Notes under the pieces: model-generated | What the model was told of the DNA's origin: nothing | Database searches by the model: none | What the model saw: only the letters and a program-made list of their open reading frames with translations | NCBI GenBank assembly: GCA_947381435.1 | Contig: CANCVE010000015.1 | Location: forward strand, 1 to 54,164 | DNA from: Chitinophagaceae bacterium | Lineage (GTDB): Bacteria > Bacteroidota > Bacteroidia > Chitinophagales > Chitinophagaceae | Length of the DNA stretch: 54,164 nt | Direction: 5' to 3' | Translations under genes and position numbers: made by a program | Shown here: in pieces, positions 16,000 to 41,427 of the stretch | How positions within the stretch are numbered: the stretch's first letter is position 1 | Layout of the letters: each line of letters begins with the position of its first letter

Positions 16000-16330
16000 C
16001 ACCATAAATATTGATGGCAGCGTTCATTTTTTGGGTAGTAGCAAGCATGAAGTTTGATGGCAGTCACCATGAAGTTTGGGGGGCGCAACCATGAAGTTTT
16101 GTGGTAGCTGCTGTGGTAGTTGATGGCAGTCACCATGAAGTTTGGTGACAACCACCATAAGAGTTGATGGCAGCCATCAACAAAATCGATGGCATACCAT
16201 GAAAGTTGGTGGCAACTACCGTAAGAGTTGATGGCAGTCATCAACAAAATTGATGGCATGCCATGAAAGTTGATGGCATCTACCATAGTAGTTCATGGTT
16301 CGCAGCATGATAGCAGGTGGTACGCATCAA
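16000..16330. repeat. Degenerate ~21-bp tandem array with palindromic units
   Basis: About 15 diverged units of 20-23 bp are built around GATGGCAGTCACCATGAAG. Two adjacent 64-bp super-units (16166-16229 and 16230-16293) differ at only a few positions. Several units are self-complementary, for example 16163-16181, where GTTGATGGC and GCCATCAAC flank a single A. The array starts about 40 bp after the stop of the giant lyase gene. The long minus-strand open frame across it has no coding character. Confidence 0.85.
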
Positions 16331-16373
16331 CAAAAAAGAGGTAATTATTACACTACAATAAGGTAAAGAACAT

Positions 16374-16406
16374 AAAAAAGGGTTGATTCAACTAAGAACC
16401 AACCCT
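16374..16406 (-). terminator. Intrinsic terminator of the minus-strand decayed gene
   Basis: On the minus strand an 11-bp stem (16396-16406 with 16379-16389, one mismatch) has a 6-nt loop and is followed by a T run (complement of 16374-16378). It lies 27-60 bp after the stop codon at 16433. Confidence 0.7.
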
Positions 16407-16434
16407 ATCAATTATCAATTTTAAATTATCTATT
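16407..16434. repeat. Heptanucleotide track
   Basis: Four 7-bp units sit in perfect register: ATCAATT, ATCAATT, TTAAATT, ATCTATT. They abut and overlap the stop codon of the minus-strand gene remnant. Other 7-bp tracks occur at 17667, 49970 and 51951. Confidence 0.6.
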
Positions 16435-17142: not shown

Positions 17143-17284
17143 AATATACTTTTTAGTAAGCAGCAAAACTCACTGATGGGCACACTTTAATCGTTACACA
17201 ATTCCTTGAAAAGTTTACAGAGTCTGGTTATTGAAAACAAATAAAAAAGTTATTATACCTTCTACAAAAGTTTAAATGTTCATT

Positions 17285-17708: not shown

Positions 17709-17730
17709 ATAACATAAACTAAGAACTAAT

Positions 17731-18238: not shown

Positions 18239-21200
18239 ATGACCAAGATGAATAAATTTTTACTGAGAGTTAGTTTGGTGGTGATGGTGATTATGGTTGG
18301 TGTTGCTAGTGCAATAGCACAAAAGCTTGCAATAGAGTCTACCAATGGTAAATTGTCGTTCTGTAGTGGTGGTACTATTGTTTTACAAGCAAAAAGTGGG
18401 TATGTCCCTACAATAGACAATTATAGTTGGCAACAAAGTGCTAGTGGAACATGGAATACATTAGGGAGTGGTACCACTTATTCGGCACAGTCAAATGGTG
18501 ATTATAGGTTGGTGGTTAAAGCTGGCAATACTTTTGACACGTCAAATACACTATCAATAACAATAAACAATAACCCATCCGTAACGCCATTTACCTTCAT
18601 TAGTAATAACAGTTGCGCAAATATTGGTGTGTTATTTACCGACAAGAATTCAGGAATGAAATATAGTTGGGATTTTGGTGATGGGAGTAGTGTTACTAAT
18701 AGTCAAAACCCTTCACACTCTTTTCCGCAGAAAACAGGAACCGGTTCAGATAACTATAATGTAAAAGAAACTATTACAGATGGAAATGGGTGTCAGGCGA
18801 GTACTAATCAACAGGTTACAATTAAGCAATTACCCGATGCTACAATAATAGATATTGGACATGATGCAAATACTGATCCTTTCGTCAATTGTGGAAACAC
18901 CGCTTTTGCAATAACAATCAAAAATAAATCAACAACTTCTAATACTCAATATTCAATAGATTGGGGGGATGGCACCACAGTATTAAATACTGATAATTTG
19001 GGTTTTCCATTAGATGGAACTCTCCAACACAACTATAATAGATTAGGGTATTCAAACTTAGTTTTCAAAGTTTCAAATGGTAATAGTTGCACAACATCCC
19101 ATACTTATCGCGTTTATGATGGTAGTAATCCAGCTGGAGCCATTAACCAACCTGGAGGTACAATTGGTTTAAATATACCAGCGACAATTGATTTTCCAAT
19201 TACCAATACAGCTTTAAATCCACCCGGCACTGTCTACACATTTACAAGTAATGATGGTACTCCAGCATTTGTAGACTCATCTTACCCAGGTCTCACCAAT
19301 TATTCGCATGTTTTTGCATTCTCGTCTTGTGGTGCAAGTATTCCCAAAACAATACCCAACTCATTTTGGATTACGATGACTTACAGCAATCCATGTGGTA
19401 CTTCTGGAAGTACTGTTGACCCCATTACTACATGTCAAAAATCTAAAGCTAATTTTTCTGTTGCCCCAGATACTATTACTTGTACAAATACTCAAACAAC
19501 TTTCACAAATACTACTATTAATGGTATTTCTGTTAGTAATAAAGGAGTTTGTAATTCAACAACTGCAATTAACTGGAATATAATACCAACGAGTGGGTTT
19601 ACAATTACATCGGGAGTAATGGGGGACAAGTCTCCATTACTAAATGATCCCGCAACATGGGGGTCTAATGTATTAAATATAAAATTTAACAAAGCTGGTG
19701 TTTATCAAGTTGCACTAATAACAATTAACGGGTGTAGCCGTGATACTCTTACAAAAATGATTTGTGTTCAAGAACCCCCTGTTATTTCTTTTAATATCCC
19801 AAATCTTGTTGGATGTATACCCTTCACTTCTAATTTTTCAAATACTTCAACTTTATCGACTTGTGGTTTAAATATTGTAAAGTGGAATGTTACTAAGATA
19901 AATAGCTCCTGTTCTAAAGATTCTTTAAATGACTTTTCCTACCTCACCAACACAAACCCTTCTCTGAATAATCCTATTTTACAATTTAATAATGAAGGTA
20001 CATACCAAGTTAGTCTGACGTTATCAGGGGGCTGTCCATCTACTACATCCAATAGTCAAACCATTACGGCTCGTAGAAAACCAGATGTGTCATTGTCCGT
20101 TTCAGGGGGATGTGCTGGTCAAAGTGTAAATCCAATGGCAAATGTATTAGGCTGCGGTGGCACCAACCTCGCATACAATTGGTCATTTCAAGGTGGCACA
20201 CCCTCAACCTCTACATCTGCTAACCCAGGAGCGATTAGTTTTAGTTCAGGTATTAATAATGTAAAATTAGATGTTTCAAATACCGAATGTGGCACAACTA
20301 CAGCATTTCAGAAGATTACAGTTGCAGAAGCACCTTCAATTTCTGCAACTACAGGGACGCCCAGCAGTTGTGGCAGTAGCGATGGATACATTATTTTAAG
20401 TGGATTGGATAAGAATGCAACTTATTCTTTGAGTTATAATAATACCGTTAAGTATTCAAAAGCAGTCTCTGATGGAAATGGGCAGTTTAAAATATCTGGG
20501 CTTTCGGCAGGTAGTTATAACAATATCACAGTAACCAATATTACAGGTTGTACTTCAAATGCATTATCTGTAAGTTTGTCTGCACCTACATCGCCTGCTG
20601 CACCGACTGTAGCACAGGCCACACCTCAGATATTATGCAGTGGTAATACACTACAACTTTCAATAAGTAGCCCTATAAATAATGCTTCTTACACTTGGAA
20701 TGGCGCTGGTATAACCAATTCAAACAACACTGGCACAAGTATTATAATTAATTCGATAACTATTGCTGACTCTGGTACTTACTCGGTTGTGGCATCAGTT
20801 AATAATTGCCCATCCCAAGCAACAAATATCAGAGTCGTAGTAAATCAAACTCCCTCCTTGCCTCAAATATCTGGAACTAATAATGTTTGTACTGGGTCGC
20901 CAATTAACCTTACGGCTCTAACCACAACATCAGGAAACATAACTTATTCCTGGGAATTACCGGATAACTCTACCAACAGCACCAATGCTATTTCTGTTGT
21001 TTCTGCTAGCACTGCCAATGCAGGTAACTATAAAGCAAAAGCTACATTAGGAACTTGTGTGTCTCCAGAAGCTAGCTTTGCTGTGTCTGTTAATGTAACA
21101 CCCAATATCAGTTCTAGTAGCAGTAATCCACCTGCTAATTGTGCTTCATCCACTGGTTCAATTATATTAAATGGTCTTGCTGTCAATAAACCATATACAG

Positions 21201-24200
21201 TAAACTATAACGGAACTTCTTCTGCCACAACTTTTACAACTGATGGCACTGGAACACTTACTTTTTCTGGTTTAGTCGCAGGTACATACTCAAACATAAC
21301 CGTTACTGATGCTACAGGATGTATCTCCAACCAAGTCGGTCCCTTCACTTTAAAAGACCCTACTCCACCTGCAGCACCTACGGCTAGTGGTGCAATCGAA
21401 ATATGTAGTGGCAATACCTACACGCTTACGGGCATTAGCTCTGTAGGCGGTGTAACATATAGCTGGACTGGACCAAATGGCTTTAATAGTGTTAGTCAAA
21501 ATCCAGTCATCCCTAATATAACTACAGCGGGTACTGGGGCATATCAGTTTAAAGTTATTCTTTCTGGGTGTAATTCAGATCCTGCAATCGTTAATTTGGT
21601 AGTAGATTCTACCCCCGTTACCCCAATTATTGCGGCAATTCCTCCTTTGTGCGAAGGTGGTAAATTGGTACTTTCTGCGGCTTCGGCCACTTCGGGTATT
21701 GGCTCTATTTCATATCAATGGTCTGGGCCAAATAGTTTTTCCAGTTCACTAAAAGAATACATCAAAAGCCCTGCAACTGCTAGCGATAGTGGTACTTATA
21801 AAGTGATAACTACCAATACAAACGGTGCATATAGTTGTGTTTCAGATATGGCTTCTGTTTATGTAACTGTACGACCATCCATTACACAAGCAAAAATAAT
21901 TGGGTCAAAGGATACACTGATTTGTGGGTTCACAGCTACTCACAATAATACGGGGAATCTATCGGGATATTTGGATGCTTCCCGTACTTACGAAACAGGT
22001 AGTTGGTTGGTAGTGCAGCCACCTACGGGTGCAAATGCTTCAATAGCAAATAGTACAAGCAAAAACACCACCATCACCTTCGATAAAAGTGGGGTCTATC
22101 TTGTTCAATGGGCAATTAATAATACTGTTTGTTCGCCTACCACCGATACCATTAAGTTCGAAGTATTTGATAAGCCAGCTATTATTGCTCAATCTCTTTC
22201 TACAAGATCCGTTGATGTATGTGCATCCAATCCTGTAACTGTAGCTATAAGCGATGCTGACTATTATGGGCAGATAAAACAATGGCAAATAAAGAGACCT
22301 TTTACATCAACCTCTTGGAAAGATACGGCTGTACAATCTAATTCTATTACCTTCAATAATGTACAAGATACCTTTATTGTAAGACTGGTGGTTGTATCAA
22401 AAGATACGCTGCATTGCGGTACTGATTCTGTTACTAAAGACTTACAAATAAATGTTGCTCCTCCTTCAAATGCAGGAACTGCCACAGGGCTAGACACGGT
22501 TTGTCAAGGGACTAACTCAGGCAACATTACATTAACGGGTAATACTGGTAGCCCTACATGGCAATCTTCCACAGATAGTGTTGTGTTTACTAATATTCCC
22601 AACAGTGCCGGAACTCAATTTAGTTATAGCAATCTTACTCAAACCACTTGGTATAGAAGTGCAGTAAAGAGTGGTACTTGCGATACTGTTTTTAGTAATG
22701 CCATCAAGATAACGGTTGTTCCTCCTGTTACTGTTGCCAATGCAGGTGCGGATAAATCACTTTGTGCAGACTCTGTGTATCATTTAGAAGGCAATACACC
22801 TTCTACTGTAGAAACAGGCACTTGGACATTTTCTTCTGTAGATACTGGCAGGCTCGATGATGTTCATAATCCCACTACCTTTATCAGGGGATTAAAAGCC
22901 AACACTAATTACACCTTGGTTTGGAGTATTGATAACCATGTATGTTCTAAATCAACTGATGCCGTAACAATTACAAACCTAAACCCACTAACCAATGCAA
23001 TAGATACGGCAACAGTAACCTATTGTAATAGTGCGGCAGTTACCATAAATGGCATTGCTGCAAGTGGAGGTAATGGAACCTACAGCTATCAGTGGGAACT
23101 AAAACAAGGCAATGGCTGGTATGCCATACCAAATGCAATAAGTGCGAGTTATAGTTTTACAGCAGATACTAGTGTGGTGCTACATAGATTGGTAGTTGCA
23201 GGGCCTTGTACAAGTACTAGTTTGGAAAAGACTGTTTATGTACAACCTCCTTTGGGCAATAATTTCATAACTGGTAGTGGAGCGGCTTGTATTAATACTC
23301 CAATTGGTTTACTTACAGGTAGTACTCCTTCTGGTGCAGATGGTAGTTTTATTTATCAATGGCAACAAACAACTGACACCATAAATACACCTTGGACAGA
23401 TATTAGCGGAGCAACCTCAAAGGACTACACTGCACCTATTGTTACGCAGGATATTTTCTACAAACGACTGGTTACAAGCCAACTTTGTGCGGGTAGTCAA
23501 TCAAACACAAGTCCAGTATTTACGGTGTTGGTTCGTCCAGATGCACAAGCCCAATGGCAAATTAATACCGACACATCATGCGCACCGTTTGCCATTGATA
23601 ATATTGCAGTAAGTCCAATTGTAGACATAATTAGAAATGGAAGTTACAGTTGGTATGCACACGATTCTTTGTATGGTAATAGTACTAGCATTAATCCTGG
23701 ATATACATTGGTGGCTGCAGGTGATAGTGTTAATATAAAGATGGTAGCAGTAAGCAAATATGGTTGTAAGAATGATTCTCTGGCTCATTGGTTTGTAACG
23801 CCACCAAAACCTGTTACCAACTTTAAGGTGTCGGATAGTGCCAATTGTGGACCATTGGCAGATACTTTAACCAACCTGACACCATTAATAAATCGTTTCC
23901 ATTACTTCTGGGATTATGGATATTCACCTACATCCACTTCCACATTAATACAGCCTGGCATAGTGGTATTCCCTTCCAATCCTTTGAATAAGGATACAAT
24001 ATATACCATTAGGCTAACTGCTTTTAATCAGTGTGATACTGTTAGTGCAAGTAAGAATATCAAAGTCCGCTCCAAGGCAAAAGCAATCTTTACACCAGTT
24101 AAGACCTTTGGATGTTCCCCATTGGTAGATACATTCTTCAATACCTCAAGGGGAGACAGTACCAAGTATTTATGGCAGTTTGGGGATGGTGCAACTACTT

Positions 24201-26866: not shown

Positions 26867-27022
26867 CCAAGACCACTGATTAAATGATTTGAATGATAAA
26901 AATGATTGATTCCATTGATTTCAAAGGATTTCAGACATCCATTTTTCGCAAACCAATTTCTGTTGAGTATAAATATACTAAGGCAGGGATATTTAAAAGT
27001 CAAATCCTTAACCTAGTGATAT

Positions 27023-27127
27023 TGCCCTTTATTGGGCGCGGTGTATGATAAACTTGCTCCATACCCCGCCTTTATGGGACGGGGTGTCGGCAAAAAACAC
27101 CCCATTATGGGACGGGGGCATGGCAAA
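27023..27127. repeat. Three GC-rich degenerate repeat units leading into the 22-bp array
   Basis: Related segments start near 27024, 27064 and 27098. They share a C run, TTTATGGG or ATTATGGG, a G run with GTG or GC, and a trailing GGCAAA or GATAAA. Units 2 and 3 form C-run/G-run hairpins. The rest of 26867-27022 is AT-rich with loose TGATT repeats and no gene. Confidence 0.6.
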
Positions 27128-28986: not shown

Positions 28987-31900
28987 ATGAAAAAACTATA
29001 CACGCATTGCTTCTTATTGGTTTTTGTATTTCTTGTTGTTTCTGCTAATGCTCAATACTATCCGGGCGGTTTTGCTAAGAGCAAAATTAATATCTGGCTA
29101 GATGCTAACGATTCATCTACCCTTGTAAGGGATAGTGCCGGCATTGCAGGTAATGTAACTACTTGGAAGGACAAGGCAAATAACTTATCTGCCACACAAG
29201 CTACAGCTGCCAACAGGCCACGCTATACTACCCAATCTGGCAAAAACATTGTTGAATTTAATGGTACTAAAAACCTCGACATTGCTGCTAATGCATTGGG
29301 GGCGCCACAAAACGGGTACAATCTGGCGCAGGTGGTGTATGTGTATCCAGATATTTCTACTTCTCTCACCGATTTTAGGGTAGGTACATATAGTACTAAT
29401 AATGTTGCCACTCAGGGTATGCCTCAAATAGGGATAAGGTATTTAACCACCTCAGGATATAATAAATATGTTGTTACCACAGTAAGAAATAATACAGGAT
29501 ATTATTACACAGGTTACAATGACCTCAGGGGGCAATGGTGTATCCCCGGCAATTACACACCCGGCAATTTACCTTCACCTAGTAGCAATGCTTACTCGTA
29601 TTATTATCACAATGGGGGAGGAACATTATCCTCAAACGGTGCAGAAACGCCTCCCTCTACGTTAACAACAACCATTGGTAACCGATATCAGTTTACCAAT
29701 TCTGTGCACTGGGGTATTGCCGAAACAGTCTTGGCAGGCTACGATATCAAAGTTTCTGGTAAGCGTATCATCGATCTATATCTTGCCGCTAAGTGGGGAA
29801 TGTTAGATACCCTTATCAACTCTTATGGAGCATTATATGCTCCTCTAAATCAAGCTTTTAATAACAATTTGGTGGGTATTGGCATAGAAGCAGCTGGTGA
29901 TACAACCAACAGTACAGGGTCTAATAACGGACTTGGTTTGCAGAATATTGGTGGAGTAATTGGCTTTTTGCGTAAACAAGGCAGTTATATAATGGCAGCA
30001 GACAATGCCCTAATTGGTAATGTAACAATGGCAACTAATATTACCCGTTGGAACCGTGCGTGGTACTTAACCAAAACCGATCAGTCTGGTTATGGAGGCC
30101 TTTTAAATGTATTTTTCGATTTCACCAGTTATGGTCAGGTTGGTGCTTTGGATACTGCCAATAATAACTACTACTTGCTTTACAACCCTACCAATGGGTA
30201 TTTTAACAGTGATAGTAATTATTTGGTTAAGATTAATTCATATCAGCAAATTGCTGGCACCAAACAGTTGGCTTTCTTGTTGGATGGTCTAAACCTGAAC
30301 AACGGTTTCTACACCATAGTGTATGCACCTAAAGGTACAAGCACTGCTGCCATACCCAATTTGGCAACTTTTGTACCTGCTAGCATTACACTCAGCCCAG
30401 CACCTTTAATTACTTCTGTTTATTCTGGAAATACCTATAACTATATCATCATAGATTCTTCGGCAATAACCTATCCTGTTGCCTATTATAAAATATATGC
30501 GGGCATTAATGGAGGCAACATAACAGCTATAGACAGCACGGTGAGTACACCAAAATATTACGCACATTATAACTTAACTGATGGAAATACCTACGCTTAC
30601 AGAATATCTGCCGTATATGCGCCAGGTAAGGAAAGTATTTTGTCCGATTCTGTTCTAGGTATTCCAAACAACAATACGCCTGCATGGCTGGTGCAACCAC
30701 AATACAGCGCATCAGGACAGATATTTATGTCTGCCAGTTCACCTTTATCTGGCTTGCCCCTTAAATTTAACTTTAATAATGTTGCTGGCGGTGGTCACAG
30801 TAGCGGTTACCAAACAAATGCTTCCTTTACAGATAGTCTGTTAACCAATGGTAACACTTACAGTTATCGGTTTCAGTTTATGGATACAGCTCAGGGTATC
30901 AGTACTCAATCTGGCTGGAGTACAACTATTTCCGTTTTGTTGACGGATTCCTTGCAAGGAGGTTTTACTACTGCACTTAGTTTCTTCGACCCAAATAGTA
31001 TCTGGGCACCAAATGGTATTGGCCCCTCTACCATCACCCCAGCCACTCAGGATATGTCTTCGCTTTGTATGGTGAAGCATGCACCTGCAATTGGAATCCA
31101 TCCTAGAGTGTTTTGCAACCCAGAAGACTCTACCAGCATAAGGTGGCGTATTGCTAACACCTACAGCGGAAAGTCTGCTGCCCGTTGGATACATGCTTAC
31201 ACTACAATGCTCAATTTAGGATTTGGTACTGGCTATACATTTAGCTATACTGGCTATTATAATAAAGACACAATGGGTAACCAGGTTATTAACAATGGCG
31301 GGGCATGGAACGTGCAACCTTATTATAATAACCTAGCTGCTGGCGATACAGGAACTACCTATAACTATAGTAACCTTTGGAATGGTCAATCTGGTAAAAT
31401 GACTTACCTATTTGCGCAAGAAGCAATGGAATGTTGGTTGTATAGAAATCAAAATGATCCCGCTACGGGACTAAACTATGCCACACGTGCTACCAAACTG
31501 GCAAAAGCAATTACTACTTGGGCAAAGAAGGCTTTGGCTAATACTACTACACCCTTAAACCCTGACAATGCTTCACAGTTTGGAGGGGCTAATATGTATT
31601 ATGTATATGATTTTTTATACGACCAGATGACAAAGAACCAACAGGATACTGTGCGGATGGCTTTGATGGCGATGTTGCCTGATAGTACCCTTTTTCATGG
31701 ACTAGGCACAGCTTCCTATACTGCTACTTCCAATTGGTTAACATTTCCTCAAGGAGTTACTTATTTCTTTGCAGTTGAAGGTGAACCAGGTTACTCAGCA
31801 CAGGATACTAGTACAGTTAACTTGTACTACAGAACAGTATGGAACTTTTTAACGTATGGAGTTTATAGCAAAACAGGGAATATATATGAAGGACTAGGAA

Positions 31901-34900
31901 AAGACCAACTAGATATACCAGACTTATATGCAGCAGCAAAAAGAGGTTATAGTATGCTTGGCCATCCATCTGTAAAAAGTTACGCTACCAAATATTTGCC
32001 AGCCTTGGTACAGCCTTTTGGATATTCTTTTGTAGGTACTGACTTGCTTGGTGGTACGCAAAGTGGTTTGTATGCGTACCCACAATATGCTTCCCCTTCC
32101 ACAGGCGGTTGGCGTCAGGGCTTTTCGGATGTATTGGGTTTAAAATGGATTTTTCCAAAAGATACTGCTGCTGATTTTGTATGGAAAAACTATATGCAAC
32201 GGCCTTTGGCAAACTCACCATATAATGCCTCCCTCAGTCCCAATTATTATTTTTATTCAGCCATGGGCGATAATTATGGCAATGGTGTTGGTGGAAACAG
32301 CTACTTTAATACCAAGCTAACAGGTTTGCTCTTTGCCTTGGATTATTTCCCTACTGCGATGCCTTTAGAAGCAAAAGCTGCTTTCAATAACAATAAAATG
32401 TACTTCGATTCTTTAGGTGGTTTCGCTACGCTCAGAAGTGGCTTCGACTCAATTTCTACTACTGTTTTCTTTGCAAACAGGCAAGACATGGGTGGGCATA
32501 CTTTCGCTAATAAGAATGAAGTTGTTTTAAGTGCCCAAGGTAGAATTTGGTTTCCAAGACCTACCAGTATTGCGAATAGTCAGTTTGGCGACCTTGCCGC
32601 TACAGGCGTTGGATCGGCAAGTGGTATTTTAGTAAATAACTATGGAGCTTCTGTAGATACTGCAGCTTCTAGCGCGGATGGAGGTAATCTATCTACTCCG
32701 GGCAAGATTGTCTATTATCAAAATAGTAATAACTTCCTTTCTATTGCGGGCGATGCAGCTACATCCTACAGTTACAAATGGCTGGGTACGCCGTTTGGTT
32801 ATGCTACCCCAGACAATCCTTACATATCCTACCCAACAGTAACACCAGTAATGGTAAGCCCAAATAGCTTTAGGTATTCTCCGTTTTATAGTTTCGATAA
32901 TACTTCTTATTATAACATATTATCTTATACCGATGTGCCTTATACCCAACCAACGTATCATCGTTTTGCACAGAAACTATTTTCTCCTAATGGTGTCTAC
33001 AAAAAAATGTACAGGACTACTTCATTGGTTGCTGCAACCAATCCTTATGTGGTTATAGCCGATGATAATCAACTGAATAGTGGTACAAATAATTACAAAT
33101 GGTTCTGCCAATTGCCATCTGATGTCATAATCGCAAGTACAGCAGTAAACCTCAATAATGTAAACTATCAAAATGATATTATCTTAAAAGAGACTACTGG
33201 CAACAGAAGACTATTGGTAAGGGTTTTAAACAATAATGGGGCAATCAGCAACACCATTCCCGGTTATCTAGATTCAACTACTTACACTTTATCAAAACTG
33301 AATAGGTTGATTGTAGAGAGTAATAGTGTTGACCCACAGTTTAAGGTATTATTGTTTGCTTACAATCAGGGCGACTCCCTACCATTAACTACTTGGAGTG
33401 GAGATAAATCAAGATTATATGTTTATAATGCTGGCACAACCAATACCATTTCATTTGCGCTAGACAGCGCAGGAAGAACAAACATTAGCTTAAATTCTCC
33501 TGACACTGGCATTAGCTGGACAGGTGCAATAGATACAATTTGGAGTAAATCCCTCAACTGGGCTACAGGCAAAGTTCCTACTGCAACTGACAATGTTATT
33601 ATTCCTGCTGCAGGTATTACTAACATGCCGGCAATTACGAATGCAACTGCTTATGCAAACAAGATTTCTATTTACAGTGGAGCTACTTTAAGAATTGATT
33701 CAGTTTTACAGTTATCTGGCGACATGACCTTGCTAGGTAATGTTATTGGTAATGGAACGCTAAAAACCGCAAGTAACTCTACTTCAGCATTTACTACTGG
33801 AGTTACGTGGAATGTAAACGTTGAATATAATCGTTCCACAGGTGGTCAAACTGTTGTTAACGGAACTTACAAAGGCTTATCAATCAACGACAGTATGCCA
33901 GGAAGCATTGTAGTTGCAGCTGGTAATTTGGTGGTGAATGGAACATTGAACATAGCTTCAGGTAACACACTAAATCTAGGAACCAATACACTTTCAGGAA
34001 CGATGGCTACTGCCACTGGAACAGGAATATTGCTAACCCAAAGTACCTCAAACCCTTGTTTGCCAAGCGGAGTTACTTGGGGGGGACAAGTGCAGTTTAA
34101 CTCAACATCGGGACCTCAATATCTACCTGCTGGCACGTATCAAAACCTTAATGTTAATACCACTTCATTTGGTACAATCTCCGCCACAGGCAATATTTCA
34201 GTAACAGATACATTGAGATTGGCTACCAAATCAACCCTTGAATTAGGTACTTATCTCCTCGGAGGGACACTTAGGATAGTAAGTGGCAACGGAACATTAC
34301 GTACCGCCAATACTACTGCAACAGGTGCCTTTCCGCCAAATGCAATCTGGGCAGGTAATGTAATATACTATAGTAGCAACAGCCAAACAGTATCTCCCGG
34401 CACTTATGTAAGCCTCGATTTATCAGGTGGAAACAATGGTGCAAGAATATTGGGAGGAAGTAGTAATCCAACGGGTACTATCAATTTAACTGGGTCGTTG
34501 GTTGCTACAACAGGTACCGTCAATCCTAATCAAACTACCGTTGTTTTCAAAGGGAATCAACAAACGGTTCCTTCTATGCAGTTTTACAATTTGGATTTGA
34601 CTGGTGGTTTTCAGACACAATTTGTTAATGCACCAGTATATATAAGTAATGTATTTACACCGGCCTCTACAACTGGAGCAGGTGCATTGGGAACTTTAGT
34701 TTTTAATGGAACCGGTGCGCAAACTATCCCATCATTTGGATACAACGGATTAACAATTACGGGTACAAAAACAGGTAGCGTAACTATTCCTAATACGCTA
34801 AACCTAACTGGCAATTTATCGTTGGCAGGTTTGTCGTTCTCTAGCGGAAGCCTTTCTTTTGCTGCAAATACAATAAGCCTAAATGGAACTATAGCACAAT

Positions 34901-37900
34901 CAATTGATGGTAATGCGGCCTATCCATATAACAATATCAATATAAATAACACGACTGCTAATGTTATTTCAAGTACTGATCTTTCAATCAATGGTACATT
35001 AACCATCAATAGTGGCGCAACATTGGATATGGGTACAGGGCAATTGTCCGGCACAGGTATTTCTATCACCAATAATGGAACTATCCGTACCCAAAATACA
35101 GGAACTACACCTATTCCCAATAGTGTAAGCTATGGTGGTACTATAAAATACAATAGCACTACTGGTACACAAAACATTGTAGCTACAACCTACAACAACC
35201 TCGATTTAACGGGTGGAACAACCGGTGGTAGAATTCTGCCCAATGGTAGCACGGTTACAATCACTGGAAATTATTTGCCAAATACTGCTGGAACGTTAAC
35301 CAATACGGGGTCTACAGTCGTATTTACGGGAGGTAACAGTCAAATAATTAATTCAGCAACAAGCTTTTCGAATCTTCAAATTAATAAAACCAATACCGCT
35401 TCTGCACTTACCTTAAATGGTGCTGTTTCTGTTTCTGGTGTATTAACCTTAACAAAGGGAAGGATAACCACTACTTCAACTAATACGTTAACCTTAGCAA
35501 ATACAGCTTCTATTATTGGTGGAAATAGTACCGCTTATATTGATGGGCCATTGGTTCGCACTGTAGCTTCAGGAACTAATAGCTATCTTTTTCCTGTTGG
35601 CATTTATGCATCTTCTACAGATTATTACTTGCCAGATACCATTACCTCAACAAGTGCCGCTGGCAATATTACAATCAGTGCATTTAGTGGAAATTCTGGC
35701 GGCACTGCAGACGGAACAACTATCAGCTCAATAAGCACTAGTGAATATTGGAAAATCAGTTCTAGCGTTGCAAATACAATTGGTATCGCAATTACCCCAA
35801 TTAGTTTAGGAAGTAATAAAGTAATAGCACAAGGTAGCAGCAGCAGTACACCCGCTGCAACTTATAGCTTTAAAGGTGGGGCCTATACAAATACAAGTAT
35901 TGCTACTACAGGTTTAGTTTTATCTGCTAATACCAACGCTTTTCTGGTAGCTGCGGTTGCAACAGTAACTGCACCAACTATTACTGCCATTACTTCTTGT
36001 GTGCCATTAACTGCTGCTAATAGTTTTTACGCTCGTGATACTGTTACCATCACGGGTACTGGATTTGAAGCGGGTAGTGCTGTTACAGTTGGTGGGCAGT
36101 CTGCTACTGTTTTAAGCACCTCGGGAGTACCAACTTCTTTAAAAGTATTAGTCAATTCAACTGCAAGCAATAATGTTATAACCGTAAGTAATGCTGGAGG
36201 CACCACTACAAACAGTAGTTTGGCTACTTTCATAGCTGGATATGCCACTAGGAATGATGGTTCCTGGAATACTGGAGCTACTTGGTTGGGTGGTGTGCAG
36301 CCAACATCCAACTTTACGGCAGCCATCAATAATACAATTACGCTAGGTGGTACCATAAGCAGTATCAGCAGTTTAACCATTAGTAACGGTGCTTCTGTTA
36401 CTACAGGCAATGTGAGTGTTAACCTAAATGCGGGTGTCACCATTACCAACAATGGTACGTTTAACTGCACATCCAATACCTGTACTTTCTTGGGTGCTGC
36501 TACTATTGGTGGCACTAATGCTGTAACCTTCAATAACATTGTTGCCTCAAATACTATCACCTTCAACACAGCCCCAACTATCAATGGCACACTCACCTTA
36601 AACAATGGTGCATCTATTGTTGGCAATAGTCCAACTTATGGTAGTAGTGCTACCCTTGCTTACAACACAGGAACAACTACTAATCCAGGATTAGAATGGA
36701 TTAGTAATGCAGCTAGTGGAGCGGGAGTTCCTCAAAATGTAACGATTGGCGCCTCTGTTGCAAATACGGTTGTTAACTTTGGATCGTCAAGTTCATATCG
36801 CCAATTGAATGGCAATCTTACTATCAGCGCGGCTACTACTGGCAATGGATTAGTATTGAGTACCGCAAGTGGAGGAGATTTGAAAGTAGCGGGTAGTGGT
36901 GGCATAAATGCCACACAAGTAGCTGCAAATGCTTATAGTAATGTACCGGGTGGATTGGTCTGCAATGGCAGAATGATTTACTTTAATGCTGCTTCTGGGG
37001 CTCAATCGCTCACTGGGCCTGCTACTGGCAATCCTTTATCGCTTGATTATGTAACCATTGGTGTAAACAATACTTCTACTACTACCGTCAATTTAGGCAG
37101 CGATATTGCTATTACTGCCATTAATGGAGGCGATCCTGTTACATTAACCAATTTGGGTACTACTAATTATATCAATTCAAACAACTCAGCTGTTTCTACA
37201 AGAAATATCACTTTAGGTACTGCCGGGCAAACCTGTACCGGTTCGGTATATATTCGGGCTGGAGGTACAAATACATCTTCTGTTACTATTAATGGAAATG
37301 GATCAGGTACTCTAAATCTAAATGTAGACAACGGAGGCGGTAATGCTTATCTAAATGCTTTTGCTATCAATAATGCAAATGTTTCGCTGCTGAAATCTAT
37401 CACTTATGTAAAATCATTCAACATAAATGCGGGTAGTTTCAATGTAAACGGCCAAAACTTTACCGACTCTGGTACTGCAACAATTGGTTCTAGTTCATCT
37501 ACCACCACAGCAACCCTTTCCATTCCTTCTACTTCAGGCAGTTACAAGTTTGTGGGTGCTGTAAATATTAGTAGCGATGGTATTTGGAGCAATACTGGTA
37601 ACAATGCAAATGTTACTTTCCAAGGAGGAATTAGTAATAGTGGAACATTTACAGCTGGCACAGGTAATTATACTTTCAATACAAACAATCAATCAGTTAC
37701 AGGCACCTTATCTATTCCTACCATTACTGTCACTTCACCTACTGTTCTAATCAATTCTGGTAAACTAACCTGTTCTACCTCACTTACTGGTACAGGTTCT
37801 CTTACTATGGATAACAACAGTTTATTGAATATAGGAGGCACACTTAGCATAACTACATTAACAGCCAACAGTAATAAAGATACTGTCAACTTTAATGGCA

Positions 37901-40900
37901 CAGGCGCACAAACCATTCCTGCTTTTAATTACAACACACTCTATATCTCAGGTTCTAGGTCTGGAAGTATCACTTTGGCTAGCACTGGCAATATTGGGGT
38001 TAATGGAGATTTGAATTGTTCACCAACCTTTACGAGCGGTTCTTTTGTAAATACAAGTAGTACAGTCATACTCAACGGAACGGTAAATCAAAACCTAACG
38101 TCTTCAAGTACTGTTAGCTTCAACAACCTTACAATCAATAACACAACTAGTGGGGGAGGAGTTGTTACTTTATCCAGCCCAACCACTATTGCCACCACCC
38201 TCACCTTAACGGCAGGCAACTTGTCTTTGGGAAGCAATAACCTCACTGTCAACAGTGGTGCAACCATATCAACGCCTTCTTCAAGCAGTTATATTGTTAC
38301 AGGAGGAACAGGGCGATTGATAAGAAAGGCGGTTTCTACAGCAACAGCTTTCCCAATTGGAACTAGTACGACCTATACTCCGCTAACCATTACCAACAAC
38401 ACAGCATCGGATATGACGGTGGGCGTTAGTCCTACCTTGACAAATGGCGTAAACGATAACACCAAGATAGTCAACCTTCAATGGTCAGTAGCAGCGGTAA
38501 CTGCCACTACTAATTCAACTATTGTTTATCAGTTTAATACGGCAGATAAGGCAAGTGCTTTCTCAACTGCATCTGCTTGTGAGTTAGGCATTTATACCTC
38601 ATCCTACAGCGTCAGCAGTTTGGGTACTCCGGCAGCCAATGGCAGTGCCTTTACATTAACTAAATCAGGATTAGTATTTACAGCTAATGCAACTTATTTA
38701 AACGTGATAGGCAATACGGGTTCCATTAATTGTACCACTGGTAGCTATGTAGGTGCCAATGATGGTGATGCCAACCTATCCGGCAACTGGTGCGGTGGAT
38801 TACCTTCTTCTGCAACAAACGTAATTATTAGTAGTACTACACCCAAACTTACCTCCAACCTATCCATCAACAACCTTTCTTTAACTTCGGGATTAAACCT
38901 AAATGGATATACCCTTACCGTAAACGGAACAGTGACTGGTGCTGGCACCATCACAGGGTCTGCCACTTCAGGGCTGAATATATTGGGTACAGGTACGCTC
39001 TATTTCGACCAAACTACCCCCGGCACTACCAATGTATTGGACACATTGACTATAAACAGTGGCGGAACAGTTACTTTGGGCAGTCCATTAAGCGTGCTGA
39101 ACTTGGTTAAACCTACGGCGGGCATATTGGCATCAGGAGGTAACCTTAGCCTTGTTTCCAGTGCTACAACAGGTACGGCAAGGGTATCTCAGGGAGGTAC
39201 CAATGGTGGCTATATTACAGGCAAGGTCACCCAGCAATTATATATACCCAACAAAACGGCCAGACGATTCAGCTTCATAGGCAGTGCGGTTGCACAGCGA
39301 ATTGATAGTGCTTGGCAACAACAGATTTACATTACAGGTTCAGGTATTGGTGGAGTTGTCTGCGGCACAGGCGGCACGCAATTTAACAGCAATGGTTTTG
39401 ATGCCACCGCCACCAACAAACCAAGCATGTTTACCTACAGTGCAACTGCCTTAAATGGTAACCGTTATGTATCAATTCCCAATACAAATGCTACCAGTCT
39501 GTCACCGGGTACCGGTTATGAAATCAATATCAAGGGCGACAGGAATGTCGGTACTTGTACAGACCAACTGAATAGCAATACCCCAACGGCACCCGTAAGT
39601 GTGGTGTTGAGTGCCACTGGTCTGTTGACACAAGGGCCACTTACTGTTTCATTAAACGATACTACCAAGCACCTGTTTACATTGCTTGCCAACCCATACC
39701 CCAATCAGATGCGGTTCAGCACATTCCAAGCGGGTAATACAGCCATCAACAACAAAATGTGGACATTCACTCCCTATGGCAATGGTAACTTTACCACTTA
39801 CTCTAATGGATTGGTGACCAATGCCGCAACAGGGTACAATAATACCAAGGGCGATTTTATAGCCATTGGTCAGGCATTCTTTGTAGAAGCCAATAAGACA
39901 GGCACCTCTGTTACCTTCCGAGAAACACACAAGGTAGATTCCACCATACCCAACTTCAATTATTTTGGATTGAATAATGAGCGGATAATCAGAATGGGCT
40001 TGTACACCACCGCCAATAGATTGCTGGATGAAGTAGCAGTACGCTACAACAATCAAGGTACAAAAGAATACAATGCCCAATGGGATGCCGCATCGTTTAG
40101 TGGTGGTGGACAGAAATTAGCCATTCAGAAAACAGGAAGTAACCTGTTGGCAATAGCCACCCGCCCAATAGCATTACTAAAGGATACCGTTCCCTTATTT
40201 GTAACTAGCTCTACAGCAGCAAATCTCCGCCTGAACTTTACAGGACTGTCAGGCTTTGATAACTCAAGTGCTATCATTTTAAGAGATAATTTACTAGGTA
40301 CAAGTCAGGATGTATCCACTCATCCAATCTACGATTTTGCCATCACTGCCGATACCAACAGTAAGGGTGCAGATCGTTTTGTATTGGAGATAGGTGGACA
40401 AGGCACTCTACCGCTAACCTTTACCAGCTTATCAGGTAAACTAACAAATGGTACAGCTCATCTGAATTGGGCAGTTACCAATGAAGCCAATGTAGCAAAC
40501 TATCAATTGGAAAGAAGTTTGGATGGCAATATCTTCAGTGGGGTTGCTACATTGAAGGCTTTAAATAAAATTAGTTTTTCAGCAGTAGATGCAAATCCGG
40601 AGGAAGGAATTAACTACTACAGGATTAAGGCAGTAAGTAAAAACGGTGTCACCATTTACAGCAATACTATACAAGTTACAGTAAAAGGAAGCAAACCTCA
40701 ATTGACTATTTACCCAACGTTAATAGCGAATCATACTTTCAACCTGCATTATAAAAACATGCCTACAGGCAACTATAAGGTAGTGTTATACAACCTGCTT
40801 GGTCAGACGGTATTCAGCAGAACAATAAAAATTGCAGTAGGAGAGGAGACCAAGGCAATAAACTTTGGTAATACCTGTGTTGCGGCAGGTGCTTACGAGG

Positions 40901-40959
40901 TACAGGTAAGTAACAGTGCAGGCATCAGTATGAAAAGAGAAAAAGTTGTGGTGGAGTAG
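28987..40959 (+). CDS. Giant T9SS-secreted protein with heparinase II/III-like lyase domain and beta-repeat stalk
   Basis: 3,990 residues. Signal peptide 1-23 (SANAQ). Residues ~32-280 look like a LamG/concanavalin-type sandwich (IWLDANDSSTL, TTWKDKANN). Two Fn3-like domains occupy ~473-655. Residues ~690-1500 resemble heparinase II/III-family uronate lyases: an HPRVF start, a long helical region, then a beta region with GGFATLRSGFDS and GGHTFANKNEVVLSAQG. The usual second His of the HAH-type motif is not evident. About 2,000 residues of beta repeats follow, with an IPT/TIG domain near 2324-2418 and two SGxWxxxxxW-type segments. The C terminus (IYPTLIANHTF, GNYKVVLYNLLGQTV, basic-Val tail) is a T9SS type A domain. 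Inference: surface-anchored polysaccharide lyase. The export call is firm; the enzyme family is probable. Confidence 0.88.
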   Translation: MKKLYTHCFLLVFVFLVVSANAQYYPGGFAKSKINIWLDANDSSTLVRDSAGIAGNVTTWKDKANNLSATQATAANRPRYTTQSGKNIVEFNGTKNLDIAANALGAPQNGYNLAQVVYVYPDISTSLTDFRVGTYSTNNVATQGMPQIGIRYLTTSGYNKYVVTTVRNNTGYYYTGYNDLRGQWCIPGNYTPGNLPSPSSNAYSYYYHNGGGTLSSNGAETPPSTLTTTIGNRYQFTNSVHWGIAETVLAGYDIKVSGKRIIDLYLAAKWGMLDTLINSYGALYAPLNQAFNNNLVGIGIEAAGDTTNSTGSNNGLGLQNIGGVIGFLRKQGSYIMAADNALIGNVTMATNITRWNRAWYLTKTDQSGYGGLLNVFFDFTSYGQVGALDTANNNYYLLYNPTNGYFNSDSNYLVKINSYQQIAGTKQLAFLLDGLNLNNGFYTIVYAPKGTSTAAIPNLATFVPASITLSPAPLITSVYSGNTYNYIIIDSSAITYPVAYYKIYAGINGGNITAIDSTVSTPKYYAHYNLTDGNTYAYRISAVYAPGKESILSDSVLGIPNNNTPAWLVQPQYSASGQIFMSASSPLSGLPLKFNFNNVAGGGHSSGYQTNASFTDSLLTNGNTYSYRFQFMDTAQGISTQSGWSTTISVLLTDSLQGGFTTALSFFDPNSIWAPNGIGPSTITPATQDMSSLCMVKHAPAIGIHPRVFCNPEDSTSIRWRIANTYSGKSAARWIHAYTTMLNLGFGTGYTFSYTGYYNKDTMGNQVINNGGAWNVQPYYNNLAAGDTGTTYNYSNLWNGQSGKMTYLFAQEAMECWLYRNQNDPATGLNYATRATKLAKAITTWAKKALANTTTPLNPDNASQFGGANMYYVYDFLYDQMTKNQQDTVRMALMAMLPDSTLFHGLGTASYTATSNWLTFPQGVTYFFAVEGEPGYSAQDTSTVNLYYRTVWNFLTYGVYSKTGNIYEGLGKDQLDIPDLYAAAKRGYSMLGHPSVKSYATKYLPALVQPFGYSFVGTDLLGGTQSGLYAYPQYASPSTGGWRQGFSDVLGLKWIFPKDTAADFVWKNYMQRPLANSPYNASLSPNYYFYSAMGDNYGNGVGGNSYFNTKLTGLLFALDYFPTAMPLEAKAAFNNNKMYFDSLGGFATLRSGFDSISTTVFFANRQDMGGHTFANKNEVVLSAQGRIWFPRPTSIANSQFGDLAATGVGSASGILVNNYGASVDTAASSADGGNLSTPGKIVYYQNSNNFLSIAGDAATSYSYKWLGTPFGYATPDNPYISYPTVTPVMVSPNSFRYSPFYSFDNTSYYNILSYTDVPYTQPTYHRFAQKLFSPNGVYKKMYRTTSLVAATNPYVVIADDNQLNSGTNNYKWFCQLPSDVIIASTAVNLNNVNYQNDIILKETTGNRRLLVRVLNNNGAISNTIPGYLDSTTYTLSKLNRLIVESNSVDPQFKVLLFAYNQGDSLPLTTWSGDKSRLYVYNAGTTNTISFALDSAGRTNISLNSPDTGISWTGAIDTIWSKSLNWATGKVPTATDNVIIPAAGITNMPAITNATAYANKISIYSGATLRIDSVLQLSGDMTLLGNVIGNGTLKTASNSTSAFTTGVTWNVNVEYNRSTGGQTVVNGTYKGLSINDSMPGSIVVAAGNLVVNGTLNIASGNTLNLGTNTLSGTMATATGTGILLTQSTSNPCLPSGVTWGGQVQFNSTSGPQYLPAGTYQNLNVNTTSFGTISATGNISVTDTLRLATKSTLELGTYLLGGTLRIVSGNGTLRTANTTATGAFPPNAIWAGNVIYYSSNSQTVSPGTYVSLDLSGGNNGARILGGSSNPTGTINLTGSLVATTGTVNPNQTTVVFKGNQQTVPSMQFYNLDLTGGFQTQFVNAPVYISNVFTPASTTGAGALGTLVFNGTGAQTIPSFGYNGLTITGTKTGSVTIPNTLNLTGNLSLAGLSFSSGSLSFAANTISLNGTIAQSIDGNAAYPYNNININNTTANVISSTDLSINGTLTINSGATLDMGTGQLSGTGISITNNGTIRTQNTGTTPIPNSVSYGGTIKYNSTTGTQNIVATTYNNLDLTGGTTGGRILPNGSTVTITGNYLPNTAGTLTNTGSTVVFTGGNSQIINSATSFSNLQINKTNTASALTLNGAVSVSGVLTLTKGRITTTSTNTLTLANTASIIGGNSTAYIDGPLVRTVASGTNSYLFPVGIYASSTDYYLPDTITSTSAAGNITISAFSGNSGGTADGTTISSISTSEYWKISSSVANTIGIAITPISLGSNKVIAQGSSSSTPAATYSFKGGAYTNTSIATTGLVLSANTNAFLVAAVATVTAPTITAITSCVPLTAANSFYARDTVTITGTGFEAGSAVTVGGQSATVLSTSGVPTSLKVLVNSTASNNVITVSNAGGTTTNSSLATFIAGYATRNDGSWNTGATWLGGVQPTSNFTAAINNTITLGGTISSISSLTISNGASVTTGNVSVNLNAGVTITNNGTFNCTSNTCTFLGAATIGGTNAVTFNNIVASNTITFNTAPTINGTLTLNNGASIVGNSPTYGSSATLAYNTGTTTNPGLEWISNAASGAGVPQNVTIGASVANTVVNFGSSSSYRQLNGNLTISAATTGNGLVLSTASGGDLKVAGSGGINATQVAANAYSNVPGGLVCNGRMIYFNAASGAQSLTGPATGNPLSLDYVTIGVNNTSTTTVNLGSDIAITAINGGDPVTLTNLGTTNYINSNNSAVSTRNITLGTAGQTCTGSVYIRAGGTNTSSVTINGNGSGTLNLNVDNGGGNAYLNAFAINNANVSLLKSITYVKSFNINAGSFNVNGQNFTDSGTATIGSSSSTTTATLSIPSTSGSYKFVGAVNISSDGIWSNTGNNANVTFQGGISNSGTFTAGTGNYTFNTNNQSVTGTLSIPTITVTSPTVLINSGKLTCSTSLTGTGSLTMDNNSLLNIGGTLSITTLTANSNKDTVNFNGTGAQTIPAFNYNTLYISGSRSGSITLASTGNIGVNGDLNCSPTFTSGSFVNTSSTVILNGTVNQNLTSSSTVSFNNLTINNTTSGGGVVTLSSPTTIATTLTLTAGNLSLGSNNLTVNSGATISTPSSSSYIVTGGTGRLIRKAVSTATAFPIGTSTTYTPLTITNNTASDMTVGVSPTLTNGVNDNTKIVNLQWSVAAVTATTNSTIVYQFNTADKASAFSTASACELGIYTSSYSVSSLGTPAANGSAFTLTKSGLVFTANATYLNVIGNTGSINCTTGSYVGANDGDANLSGNWCGGLPSSATNVIISSTTPKLTSNLSINNLSLTSGLNLNGYTLTVNGTVTGAGTITGSATSGLNILGTGTLYFDQTTPGTTNVLDTLTINSGGTVTLGSPLSVLNLVKPTAGILASGGNLSLVSSATTGTARVSQGGTNGGYITGKVTQQLYIPNKTARRFSFIGSAVAQRIDSAWQQQIYITGSGIGGVVCGTGGTQFNSNGFDATATNKPSMFTYSATALNGNRYVSIPNTNATSLSPGTGYEINIKGDRNVGTCTDQLNSNTPTAPVSVVLSATGLLTQGPLTVSLNDTTKHLFTLLANPYPNQMRFSTFQAGNTAINNKMWTFTPYGNGNFTTYSNGLVTNAATGYNNTKGDFIAIGQAFFVEANKTGTSVTFRETHKVDSTIPNFNYFGLNNERIIRMGLYTTANRLLDEVAVRYNNQGTKEYNAQWDAASFSGGGQKLAIQKTGSNLLAIATRPIALLKDTVPLFVTSSTAANLRLNFTGLSGFDNSSAIILRDNLLGTSQDVSTHPIYDFAITADTNSKGADRFVLEIGGQGTLPLTFTSLSGKLTNGTAHLNWAVTNEANVANYQLERSLDGNIFSGVATLKALNKISFSAVDANPEEGINYYRIKAVSKNGVTIYSNTIQVTVKGSKPQLTIYPTLIANHTFNLHYKNMPTGNYKVVLYNLLGQTVFSRTIKIAVGEETKAINFGNTCVAAGAYEVQVSNSAGISMKREKVVVE
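31060..33480 (+). other. Heparinase II/III-like lyase domain
   Basis: It begins with a HPRV segment typical of the N-terminal helical domain (IHPRVFCNPEDSTSIRWRI) and contains a Trp/Tyr-rich helical part. The supersandwich-like part has the RSGFD strand and a GGH motif followed by VVLSAQGRIW. The order and spacing fit heparinase II/III relatives, but one expected His is replaced near GGHTFAN. Either another residue serves or the domain is a divergent, possibly new, lyase subfamily. Confidence 0.6.
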
Positions 40960-41055
40960 GTTTGTATTTAAAGCGGTTCAATGTGGGTTTAAATAGTTTT
41001 GGCTCAACTTTAATTACTGTTTGAAGTTGGTTAAACTGCTGTTGACTCCTTAAAA

Positions 41056-41427
41056 TGTGACGGTTCGAACCTACAATAGTTACGGTTCGATGTTACGAGA
41101 GTTACGGTTCGATGTTACGAGAGTTACGGTTCGATGTTGCGAGAGTTACGGTTCGATGTTGCGAGAGTTACGGTTCGATGTTACGAGAGTCATGGTTCGA
41201 TGTTACATCAGTTACGGTTCAATGTTACATGAGTGACGGTTCGACCTTACAAATTGTAGGATTGATGTTACGAGAGTTATGGTTCGATGTTACCTTAATG
41301 ACGGTTCGATGTTACACGAGTTACGGTTCGACCTTACAAATTGTAGGATTGATGTTACAAGAGTTATGGTTCGATGTTACGGTAGTCATGGTTCGATGTT
41401 ACAAGAGTTACGGTTCGATGTTACGAG
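41056..41427. repeat. 22-bp tandem array, 17 units
   Basis: Units of 22 bp (two of them 21 bp) are based on AGTTACGGTTCGATGTTAC followed by GAG, with no spacers. A higher-order repeat of 87 bp is visible: 41232-41318 and 41319-41405 share the same series of variant units, including the odd TTGTAGGATTGATGTTAC unit. That points to recent block duplication. The array starts 97 bp after the stop of the second giant lyase gene. The plus-strand open frame across it is not a gene. Confidence 0.95.

What the first reader, a model, noticed from the sequence alone, without database searches (positions are those of the whole stretch)
16000..41427. Three sequence-unrelated 21-22-bp tandem arrays, one after each giant T9SS gene
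Arrays at 16000-16330, 27117-27380 and 41056-41427 have different unit sequences but the same period of about two helical turns, no spacers, and the same setting: the gap following a 5.2k+, 2.9k and 4.0k-residue secreted-protein gene. The tight operon at 42038-49678 has none. Same period with different sequence suggests selection for helical phasing (a phased protein-binding platform, curvature, termination or insulation after very long transcripts) or a shared expansion mechanism. I know of no described element that fits.
Basis: partly seen in the sequence, partly recalled or inferred. Interest (0 to 1): 0.8.

Follow-up and report, generated by a model that had tools for sequence, protein, structure and literature searches.

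The report
Genome-wide two-turn (21-bp) tandem arrays
A group of uncultured Chitinophagaceae bacteria carries what are probably hundreds of short repeat arrays between genes, with many different sequences but nearly always the same spacing of about two or four turns of the DNA helix; they are not specially linked to giant secreted-protein genes, and the cause of the constant spacing is not known.

Summary
The three arrays are real: 16046-16298 (22/64 bp), 27130-27380 (22 bp, 11.4 copies), 41060-41427 (22/87 bp, 16.8 copies). The giant-gene link fails: the downstream gap holds an array at 3 of 20 large T9SS-type genes (1443-5085 aa) and 3 of 20 small ones elsewhere in this genome. The constant period is genuine and genome-wide: 40 blind 20-kb stretches hold 54 arrays of 21 or 41-43 bp against 9 of all other periods from 12 to 100. 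A parallel list of 56 arrays falls into 50 unit families. Same-genus stretches have them (11 in 360 kb), same-family ones do not (0 in 281 kb). In the closest same-genus genome, arrays in the same gap can differ by one 21-bp unit, be 21 instead of 42 bp, or keep the period while the unit changes; 5 of 10 followed were missing. Arrays favour divergent gaps. Closest known: the 22/23/41-nt minisatellites of Porphyromonas (BrickBuilt, PgRS). Leading explanation: arrays that expand unit by unit, with unit length selected for phased DNA structure or protein binding. A founding process with a 21-bp ruler is nearly as likely.

The parts
16046..16298 (.). Array 1: 22-bp units in a 64-bp higher-order repeat (2.7 copies of 64); degenerate edges reach about 16000-16330
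   Evidence: relatives at C1 and C207 plus a 79-bp match at C77
27130..27380 (.). Array 2: 11.4 copies of a 22-bp unit, 93% match, 0% indels; between a 2875-aa T9SS type B gene and a PorP/SprF gene
   Evidence: related arrays at 7 other loci in the genome
41060..41427 (.). Array 3: 16.8 copies of a 22-bp unit, also an 87-bp higher-order repeat
   Evidence: related arrays at 4 other loci
3..15962 (+). 5319-codon ORF, open at the contig start; its last 1320 residues hold PL8 polysaccharide-lyase domains; C-terminal domain shared with many places in the genome; before array 1
18239..26866 (+). 2875-aa protein with T9SS type B sorting domain (TIGR04131); before array 2
28987..40959 (+). 3990-aa protein, no NCBIfam match at E 0.001; C-terminal domain like that of the 5319-codon ORF (44% identity); before array 3
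27470..28573 (+). PorP/SprF-family T9SS membrane protein, starts 90 bp after array 2
49968..50013 (.). Heptamer array (ATCTCAT, 6.6 copies; also scored at 21 bp): a separate, heptamer-type class

Best explanation
The arrays belong to a genus-wide, satellite-like class of (mostly) intergenic DNA in which unit length (21-22 bp, or doubled to 41-44 bp), not sequence, is conserved. SHOWN: constant period with some 50 unit families in the sample; one orthologous array that differs by one whole unit; a 42-bp repeat where the closest same-genus genome has a 21-bp one; an array kept in the same gap while its unit changes; some units present at sites with unrelated flanks; preference for divergent gaps. 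INFERRED: arrays grow and shrink by slippage or unequal recombination and are homogenised as they mutate, so sequence drifts quickly. Unit length is held because neighbouring units must present the same face of the helix to an abundant DNA-binding or bending protein, or must add up small bends, in promoter-rich intergenic DNA. At 2 x 10.5 bp, any repeated sequence is nearly in phase, which would let sequence vary freely.
For: Intergenic lags cluster at 21, 22, 41-44 and multiples. Blind sample: 54 class arrays v 9 of other periods, in 37 of 40 stretches. 50 unit families among 56 listed arrays. Against G005: L050:1489-1650 v L204:2931-3102, one 21-column gap in the alignment; L040:5913-6161 (42 bp) v L193:6875-7063 (21 bp) in a 93%-identical block; L050:8211-8424 v L205:4377-4580, same block, both 21 bp, 14 of 21 unit positions alike by my hand count. 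Two flank families sit beside arrays of three and four unit types. Divergent gaps 23 of 76 v others 32 of 392, p=1e-6; gaps of at least 200 bp 23 of 55 v 30 of 135, p=0.008; at least 400 bp besides the array 18 of 33 v 14 of 63, p=0.003. Dyads at p<=0.05 in 13 of 60 units, 11 of 50 families. A 10.5-bp A/T rhythm in 41-44-bp units (z 2.8, 21 families). Indels per substitution 0.071 in arrays v 0.115 in other intergenic DNA, p=0.009.
Against: No motif is common to all: the best 6-mers are in 10 of 58 units. The 21-22-bp units show no 10.5-bp A/T rhythm (z 0.0). 22-bp arrays of about 5-19 copies drift off phase with a 10.5-bp helix. The indel deficit is modest, TRF favours indel-poor arrays, and the two sides were aligned by different methods. 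Five of ten arrays followed into G005 have no array beside the matching flank, so no one array is essential. 20 of 24 arrays of 41-44 bp show no clear 21-bp sub-period. 12 of the 54 blind arrays overlap a called ORF, 3 of them of 200 aa or more. A first gap count, in which short ORFs inside arrays counted as genes, gave a weaker divergent preference (17 of 76, 26 of 328 tandem, 7 of 74 convergent).
Confidence: 0.4

Rival explanations
1. Mutational ruler without function: some slippage, repair or nuclease process peculiar to this genus founds tandem duplications of about 21 (or 42) bp; the period is then inherited by whole-unit expansion and tolerated wherever gaps are long. Supercoiling between divergent genes could favour it.
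For: In the window's genome, lags 31-32 (10.3-10.7 bp per turn) are absent while 22, 41 and 43 (11.0, 10.25, 10.75) occur, so the rule is '21 and its doublings', not 'any whole number of turns'. Family-specific periods (22 in all 8 array-2 loci) look inherited. Arrays sit in long gaps and 5 of 10 have no counterpart beside the matching flank in G005. Dyad-rich units and divergent gaps suit cruciform or slippage models.
Against: Units of different families are unrelated while length stays 21-22; at the intergenic indel rate length should drift too unless each family was founded separately. A gap that keeps a period while its unit changes needs a local explanation.
Confidence: 0.35
2. BrickBuilt-like mobile elements: each array is the core of a MITE and spreads by transposition with leader and tail.
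For: Array 1 family shares a right tail of 60 to 228 bp, with inverted-looking ends at the C1 copy noted by eye. Conserved flanks f1 and f2 recur beside arrays. Same phylum and similar period classes (22, 23, 41 nt) as P. gingivalis elements (PMC4596501).
Against: Array 2 (8 loci) and array 3 (5 loci) share no adjacent leader or tail. Flanks f1 and f2 carry different units and often go with paralogous neighbouring genes, so they may be gene-duplication blocks.
Confidence: 0.1
3. Operator arrays: each unit family is a regulon of multimerised sites for its own regulator.
For: Same unit at up to 8 loci with unrelated flanks; dyad units; divergent-gap preference. Several neighbours of array-2 loci look secreted or outer-membrane by eye (not tested).
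Against: No single functional theme among the neighbours by inspection; about 50 families would need as many regulators; the unit changes at one locus between own and G005.
Confidence: 0.1
4. Terminator or insulator after very long T9SS transcripts.
For: Three of three in the window; outside it 2 of 7 gaps after genes of at least 1000 aa v 27 of 377 after shorter genes, p=0.09. Genes ending into array gaps are somewhat longer (median 393 v 292 aa, p=0.011), but so are genes starting from them (371 v 302 aa, p=0.016).
Against: 3 of 20 large v 3 of 20 small T9SS-type genes; 4 of 22 large if two in the blind sample are added; arrays prefer divergent gaps.
Confidence: 0.02

Closest known systems
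BrickBuilt minisatellite MITE of Porphyromonas gingivalis (23-nt repeat; PMC4596501: abstract, outline, section 5 and part 1 of section 7 read)
   Same: Bacteroidota; intergenic; spacerless tandem repeats of about two helical turns; up to 22.8 copies; imperfect units; limited to a narrow lineage
   Different: One 23-nt repeat family at 19 sites, 16 of them with leader and/or tail; here some 50 unit families in the sample, an extrapolated 290-320 sites, and no leader or tail for array families 2 and 3
PgRS/MITE464 (41-nt repeats) and the 22-nt repeats of P. gingivalis W83 (as described in PMC4596501, section 7 part 1)
   Same: The 41- and 22-nt periods seen here occur there as well
   Different: Few element types; no genome-wide rule of constant period with free sequence in the parts read
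TAACTGA heptamer repeats of Beggiatoaceae, Cyanobacteria and Bacteroidetes (PMC4679880: abstract, outline and Bacteroidetes section read)
   Same: Mostly intergenic direct repeats, also in Bacteroidetes, with a suggested role in gene rearrangement
   Different: Period 7; this genome has heptamer arrays as a separate class
Plasmid iterons (recalled, no call)
   Same: About 21-22-bp direct repeats, phased, protein-bound
   Different: One short array per replicon with one unit sequence; here many arrays of differing sequence
Eukaryotic satellite DNA with higher-order repeats (recalled; only search listings seen)
   Same: Constant unit length, quick sequence turnover, higher-order repeats
   Different: Here short arrays (about 0.1-0.4 kb) in a compact bacterial genome

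Membership tests
BrickBuilt-type minisatellite MITE | Spacerless, mainly intergenic tandem repeat of 22-23 or 41 nt | tested here: met
   (42 of 54 blind arrays outside called ORFs)
BrickBuilt-type minisatellite MITE | Conserved leader and/or tail around the repeat in members sharing a unit (16 of 19 in the paper) | tested here: not met
   Array 2 (8 loci) and array 3 (5 loci): no adjacent shared flank; array 1 family: right tail only
BrickBuilt-type minisatellite MITE | One repeat unit family across the genome | tested here: not met
   56 listed arrays fall into 50 unit families
BrickBuilt-type minisatellite MITE | Terminal inverted repeats and target duplications | tested here: inconclusive
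   Inverted ends noted by eye at one array-1 relative (C1); no occupied/empty site pair was examined for an array
Heptamer (STRR/TAACTGA) repeats | 7-bp period | tested here: not met
   21-22-bp and 41-44-bp arrays have no excess at lag 7; heptamers form a separate series
CRISPR array | Unique spacers between repeats | tested here: not met
   Head-to-tail units without spacers
Described RNA element | Match to an Rfam family | tested here: not met
   0 matches at gathering score in the window
Terminator/insulator of giant T9SS genes | Enrichment after large T9SS genes | tested here: not met
   3 of 20 v 3 of 20
Iterons or architectural-protein sites | Bound by a protein in phase | not testable with these tools
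   No binding data

The most novel reading that the evidence does not exclude
The period itself is the signal: a chromosome-wide set of an estimated 300 platforms recognised by an architectural protein that reads a two-turn DNA rhythm (shape or spacing) and not sequence, found most often between divergent promoters. Sequence is free to turn over while the rhythm is kept.
Probability: 0.22. Interest if true: 0.85.

Novelty: new variant of a known kind. Interest (0 to 1): 0.6.

Why it matters
As far as I know (recalled), tandem arrays of a bacterial genome usually show a spread of periods, or one repeat family. Here one genus holds many unrelated repeat families confined to one period and its doublings, with presence, absence and unit change visible between two same-genus genomes. 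That makes two questions testable: can selection act on DNA spacing without sequence, and does some genus-specific process duplicate DNA with a 21-bp ruler? It may also bear on the 22/23/41-nt repeats of Porphyromonas. Arrays may mark rearrangement points too: several lie where gene order with G005 breaks, though I ran no control for that.

Tried and rejected
Giant-gene or terminator link: rejected; before that test, gaps after genes of at least 1000 aa had looked enriched (5 of 10, but 2 of 7 without the window). 'Any whole number of helical turns': disfavoured because lags 31-32 are absent in the window's genome while 22, 41 and 43 occur; same-genus stretches do hold one 31-bp (L145) and one 37-bp (L171) array. 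Universal core motif: best 6-mers GACAAA/TTTGTC and ACAAAA/TTTTGT in 10 of 58 units (shuffle maximum 8), so not universal. Universal dyad: 13 of 60 at p<=0.05; none of the three window units tested passes, and array 1 (64-bp unit) was not tested. Phased A/T rhythm in the 21-bp class: none. Array-adjacent small protein families (f1, f2, g1; about 210-243 aa): no Pfam match at gathering score, and only 1 to 3 relatives each in the sample, so no general partner gene. Rfam: nothing. Gene order around ValS across the genus was too broken to compare gaps. Literature: the listings of nine searches showed no report of a genus-wide constant-period set; the library is open-access PMC only, and I read parts of PMC4596501 and PMC4679880 alone.

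Limits: gene calls are my simple codon model. The blind sample comes from the larger contigs (C1-C41) and may under-count arrays, since assemblies break at repeats. No 22-bp array of 75 bp or more lies in the blind part; the 22-bp class rests on the window and its relatives. Of the 10 'other period' arrays, those of 64 and 87 bp are multiples of 21-22. Array loci are not filtered for being intergenic. Genus sampling covers 9 of 12 same-genus genomes (G001, G004, G008 not sampled); 8 of the 9 show class arrays, G006 does not. Two short G006 stretches were left out: L165 (all N) and L164 (3.9 kb, left out for no good reason). L062, the named copy of the G010 contig, was left out of the named set. 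Same-family sampling covers 11 of 23 genomes listed. In one search the large genes are 20 of the 23 of at least 1443 aa outside the window; of the other three, L052 has an array, L046 has none and one lies at a contig end; the small genes were picked by hand down the list. Ten arrays of the sample were followed into G005. Of the flank counts (5 f1 and 6 f2 places), one each is the query itself, and three others (in L029, L048, L039) had led me to the flanks.
Full report
OBSERVATION. Tandem Repeats Finder confirms the three arrays: 16046-16298 (period 22, better as 64), 27130-27380 (22 bp, 11.4 copies, 93% match, no indels) and 41060-41427 (22 bp, 16.8 copies; also 87). They lie after ORFs of 5319, 2875 and 3990 codons. 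The second carries a T9SS type B sorting domain, the first PL8 lyase domains, and the C-terminal domain of the first matches 110 other places in the genome, the third ORF among them. Each array has relatives elsewhere in the same genome: array 2 at 8 loci in all, array 3 at 5, array 1 at 3 plus a partial match.

GIANT GENES. The window is the whole contig C15 of a 4.88-Mb, 231-contig genome. From the places I examined the downstream gap of 20 large genes (1443-5085 aa; 20 of the 23 that large outside the window) and 20 small ones (531-987 aa, picked by hand down the list). Arrays of the class were found in 3 of 20 and 3 of 20; with two further large genes of the blind sample, 4 of 22. In the general sample, gaps after genes of at least 1000 aa held arrays in 5 of 10 cases, but in 2 of 7 without the window, against 27 of 377 for shorter genes (p=0.09). 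Genes ending into array gaps are somewhat longer than others (median 393 v 292 aa, p=0.011), and so are genes starting from them (371 v 302 aa, p=0.016). A mild length effect on both sides may exist; a special tie to giant T9SS genes does not show.

PERIOD. I took 40 stretches of 20 kb at fixed coordinates (5001-25000 of contigs C1-C41 except C15). In 131 kb of intergenic DNA (window included), positions whose 21-bp neighbourhood repeats at a given lag concentrate at lags 21 (145 per 10 kb), 22 (31), 41 (72), 42 (198), 43 (34), 44 (28), 63 (91) and 84 (113). A separate heptamer series stands at 7, 14, 28 and 35. Lags 10-11, 31-32 and 52-53 stand at 0.2 or less; letter-shuffled gaps give about 0. 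By array (at least 75 bp long), the 40 blind stretches hold 54 of period 21 (30), 41 (7), 42 (14) or 43 (3), in 37 of 40 stretches, against 9 of all other periods from 12 to 100; 12 of the 54 overlap a called ORF, mostly short ones. With the window the numbers are 56 and 10. A parallel list of 56 arrays falls into 50 unit families at 72% (short) or 66% (long units) circular identity, equal lengths only; BLAST of arrays with flanks linked 35 pairs. Of 24 arrays of 41-44 bp, four are clearly two diverged 21-mers (L040, L044, L048, L026); 20 show no clear 21-bp sub-period.

TAXONOMIC SPREAD. Same-genus stretches hold 11 class arrays in 360 kb, in 8 of the 9 genomes sampled, and 7 arrays of other periods from 12 to 100 bp (31, 37, 72, 81, 82, 84, 87, four of them near multiples). 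Same-family stretches (11 genomes) hold 0 in 281 kb; 79 named loci around ValS, mostly Bacteroidota by title, hold 2 in 1,282 kb (loci). The nearest named record is an uncultured Chitinophagaceae MAG (CAISCV010000137.1; L062, same coordinates as same-genus G010:C137), with a 41/82-bp array. The family name rests on such titles; the genus carries no name in my results.

ANATOMY AND DYNAMICS. (a) Same unit, different flanks: 8 array-2 loci and 5 array-3 loci share no adjacent sequence, while the array-1 family shares a right tail. (b) Same flank, different unit: flank f1 has 5 places and f2 has 6, the queries included, all within 62 bp of a class array, with three and four unit types by inspection. 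At 6 of the 11 the array lies 35-111 bp upstream of a gene of a small paralogous family without Pfam match. (c) Closest same-genus genome G005, ten own arrays followed. Both flanks syntenic: L050:1489 has the same unit and one 21-bp copy less; L040:5913 is 42 bp in own and 21 bp in G005 inside a 93%-identical block; L050:8211 is 21 bp in both, with 14 of 21 unit positions alike by my hand count. One flank syntenic, array present with unrelated unit: L058:1128 and L033:16908. No array beside the syntenic flank: L033:8055 (nearest on that contig 3 kb away), L040:13292, L040:17353, L058:6674, L058:13833. Upstream of the G005 counterpart of window 42020-46968, the contig ends in a heptamer array. 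Several arrays stand where gene order breaks; I ran no control for this. (d) Arrays occur in 23 of 76 divergent, 26 of 319 tandem and 6 of 73 convergent gaps; with at least 400 bp besides the array, 18 of 33, 12 of 49 and 2 of 14 (divergent v rest p=0.003), so gap length alone does not explain the preference. A first count with short ORFs inside arrays taken as genes gave 17 of 76, 26 of 328 and 7 of 74. (e) Indel events per substitution: 77/1083 in 56 arrays against 61/531 in own-G005 alignments of non-array intergenic DNA (p=0.009); array detection favours indel-poor arrays, so this is weak. (f) Dyads exceed letter shuffles in 13 of 60 units (11 of 50 families) at p<=0.05; none of the three window units tested passes. 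(g) 41-44-bp units have A/T rhythms of 10.5 bp (z 2.8) and 7 bp (z 3.5) on 21 families; 21-bp units have none.

MECHANISM. Two accounts remain close. Selection on spacing (0.4): whole-unit expansion and contraction plus concerted drift change the sequence, while unit length is kept because units must face the same side of the helix; 21 bp is two turns of 10.5, so any unit sequence will do. Mutational ruler (0.35): a genus-specific process founds 21- or 42-bp duplications and the period is inherited. The absence of lags 31-32 in this genome, while 22, 41 and 43 occur, speaks for a 21-bp ruler over mere phase; the stability of length among unrelated unit sequences and the promoter-side preference speak for selection. 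The two can also act together. MITE spread, family-specific operators and termination come behind (0.1, 0.1, 0.02).

KNOWN. The nearest described things are BrickBuilt (23 nt) and PgRS (41 nt) of Porphyromonas gingivalis; the paper also mentions 22-nt repeats in strain W83 (PMC4596501, abstract, section 5 and part 1 of section 7). Recurrence of about 22 and 41 nt in a distant member of the phylum is suggestive. The arrays here fail the shared leader/tail and single-unit criteria, so I do not file them as BrickBuilt. Heptamer repeats (PMC4679880, abstract and one section) are a separate class. I saw no report of a constant-period, variable-sequence set in the listings of the nine literature searches named under Tried and rejected.

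Noticed in passing
L193:3260-3520 (G005:C24) v L040:2490-2560: A dispersed repeat of about 150-167 bp (35 of the 58 matches, by my count; only 40 of 298 candidates were scored) is inserted in G005 at a site empty in the window's genome, with a 7-bp target duplication GATTATT: a probable MITE of the genus, separate from the arrays.
   Followed up: partly
window 26863-26981: A dispersed repeat of about 100 bp that begins at the end of the 2875-aa gene; 27 of the 48 matches listed in same-genus genome G005 (my count).
   Followed up: no
window 51951-51979: Four perfect copies of the heptamer GTTGACC inside the reading frame of valyl-tRNA synthetase (28 nt, not a multiple of 3).
   Followed up: no
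window 16433-16858 and 17008-17166 (-): Two ORF pieces that match one family of proteins of about 240 aa without Pfam match (L002:165-896, L048:1940-2644); they look like a broken copy next to array 1.
   Followed up: no
L182-L192: Paralogous proteins of about 210-235 aa without Pfam match at gathering score, six of them with an array 35-111 bp upstream of the start.
   Followed up: partly
L040, L058, L033, L050 v G005: Gene order is very broken between two same-genus genomes with 71-95% DNA identity in matching blocks, and breaks often fall at array-bearing gaps; not tested against a control.
   Followed up: partly
L052:3669-10845: A 4263-aa ORF made largely of 153-bp (51-residue) repeats.
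   Followed up: no
L145:17748-17836 and L171:1532-1699: The only 31-bp and 37-bp arrays met in same-genus stretches: exceptions to the two-turn rule.
   Followed up: no
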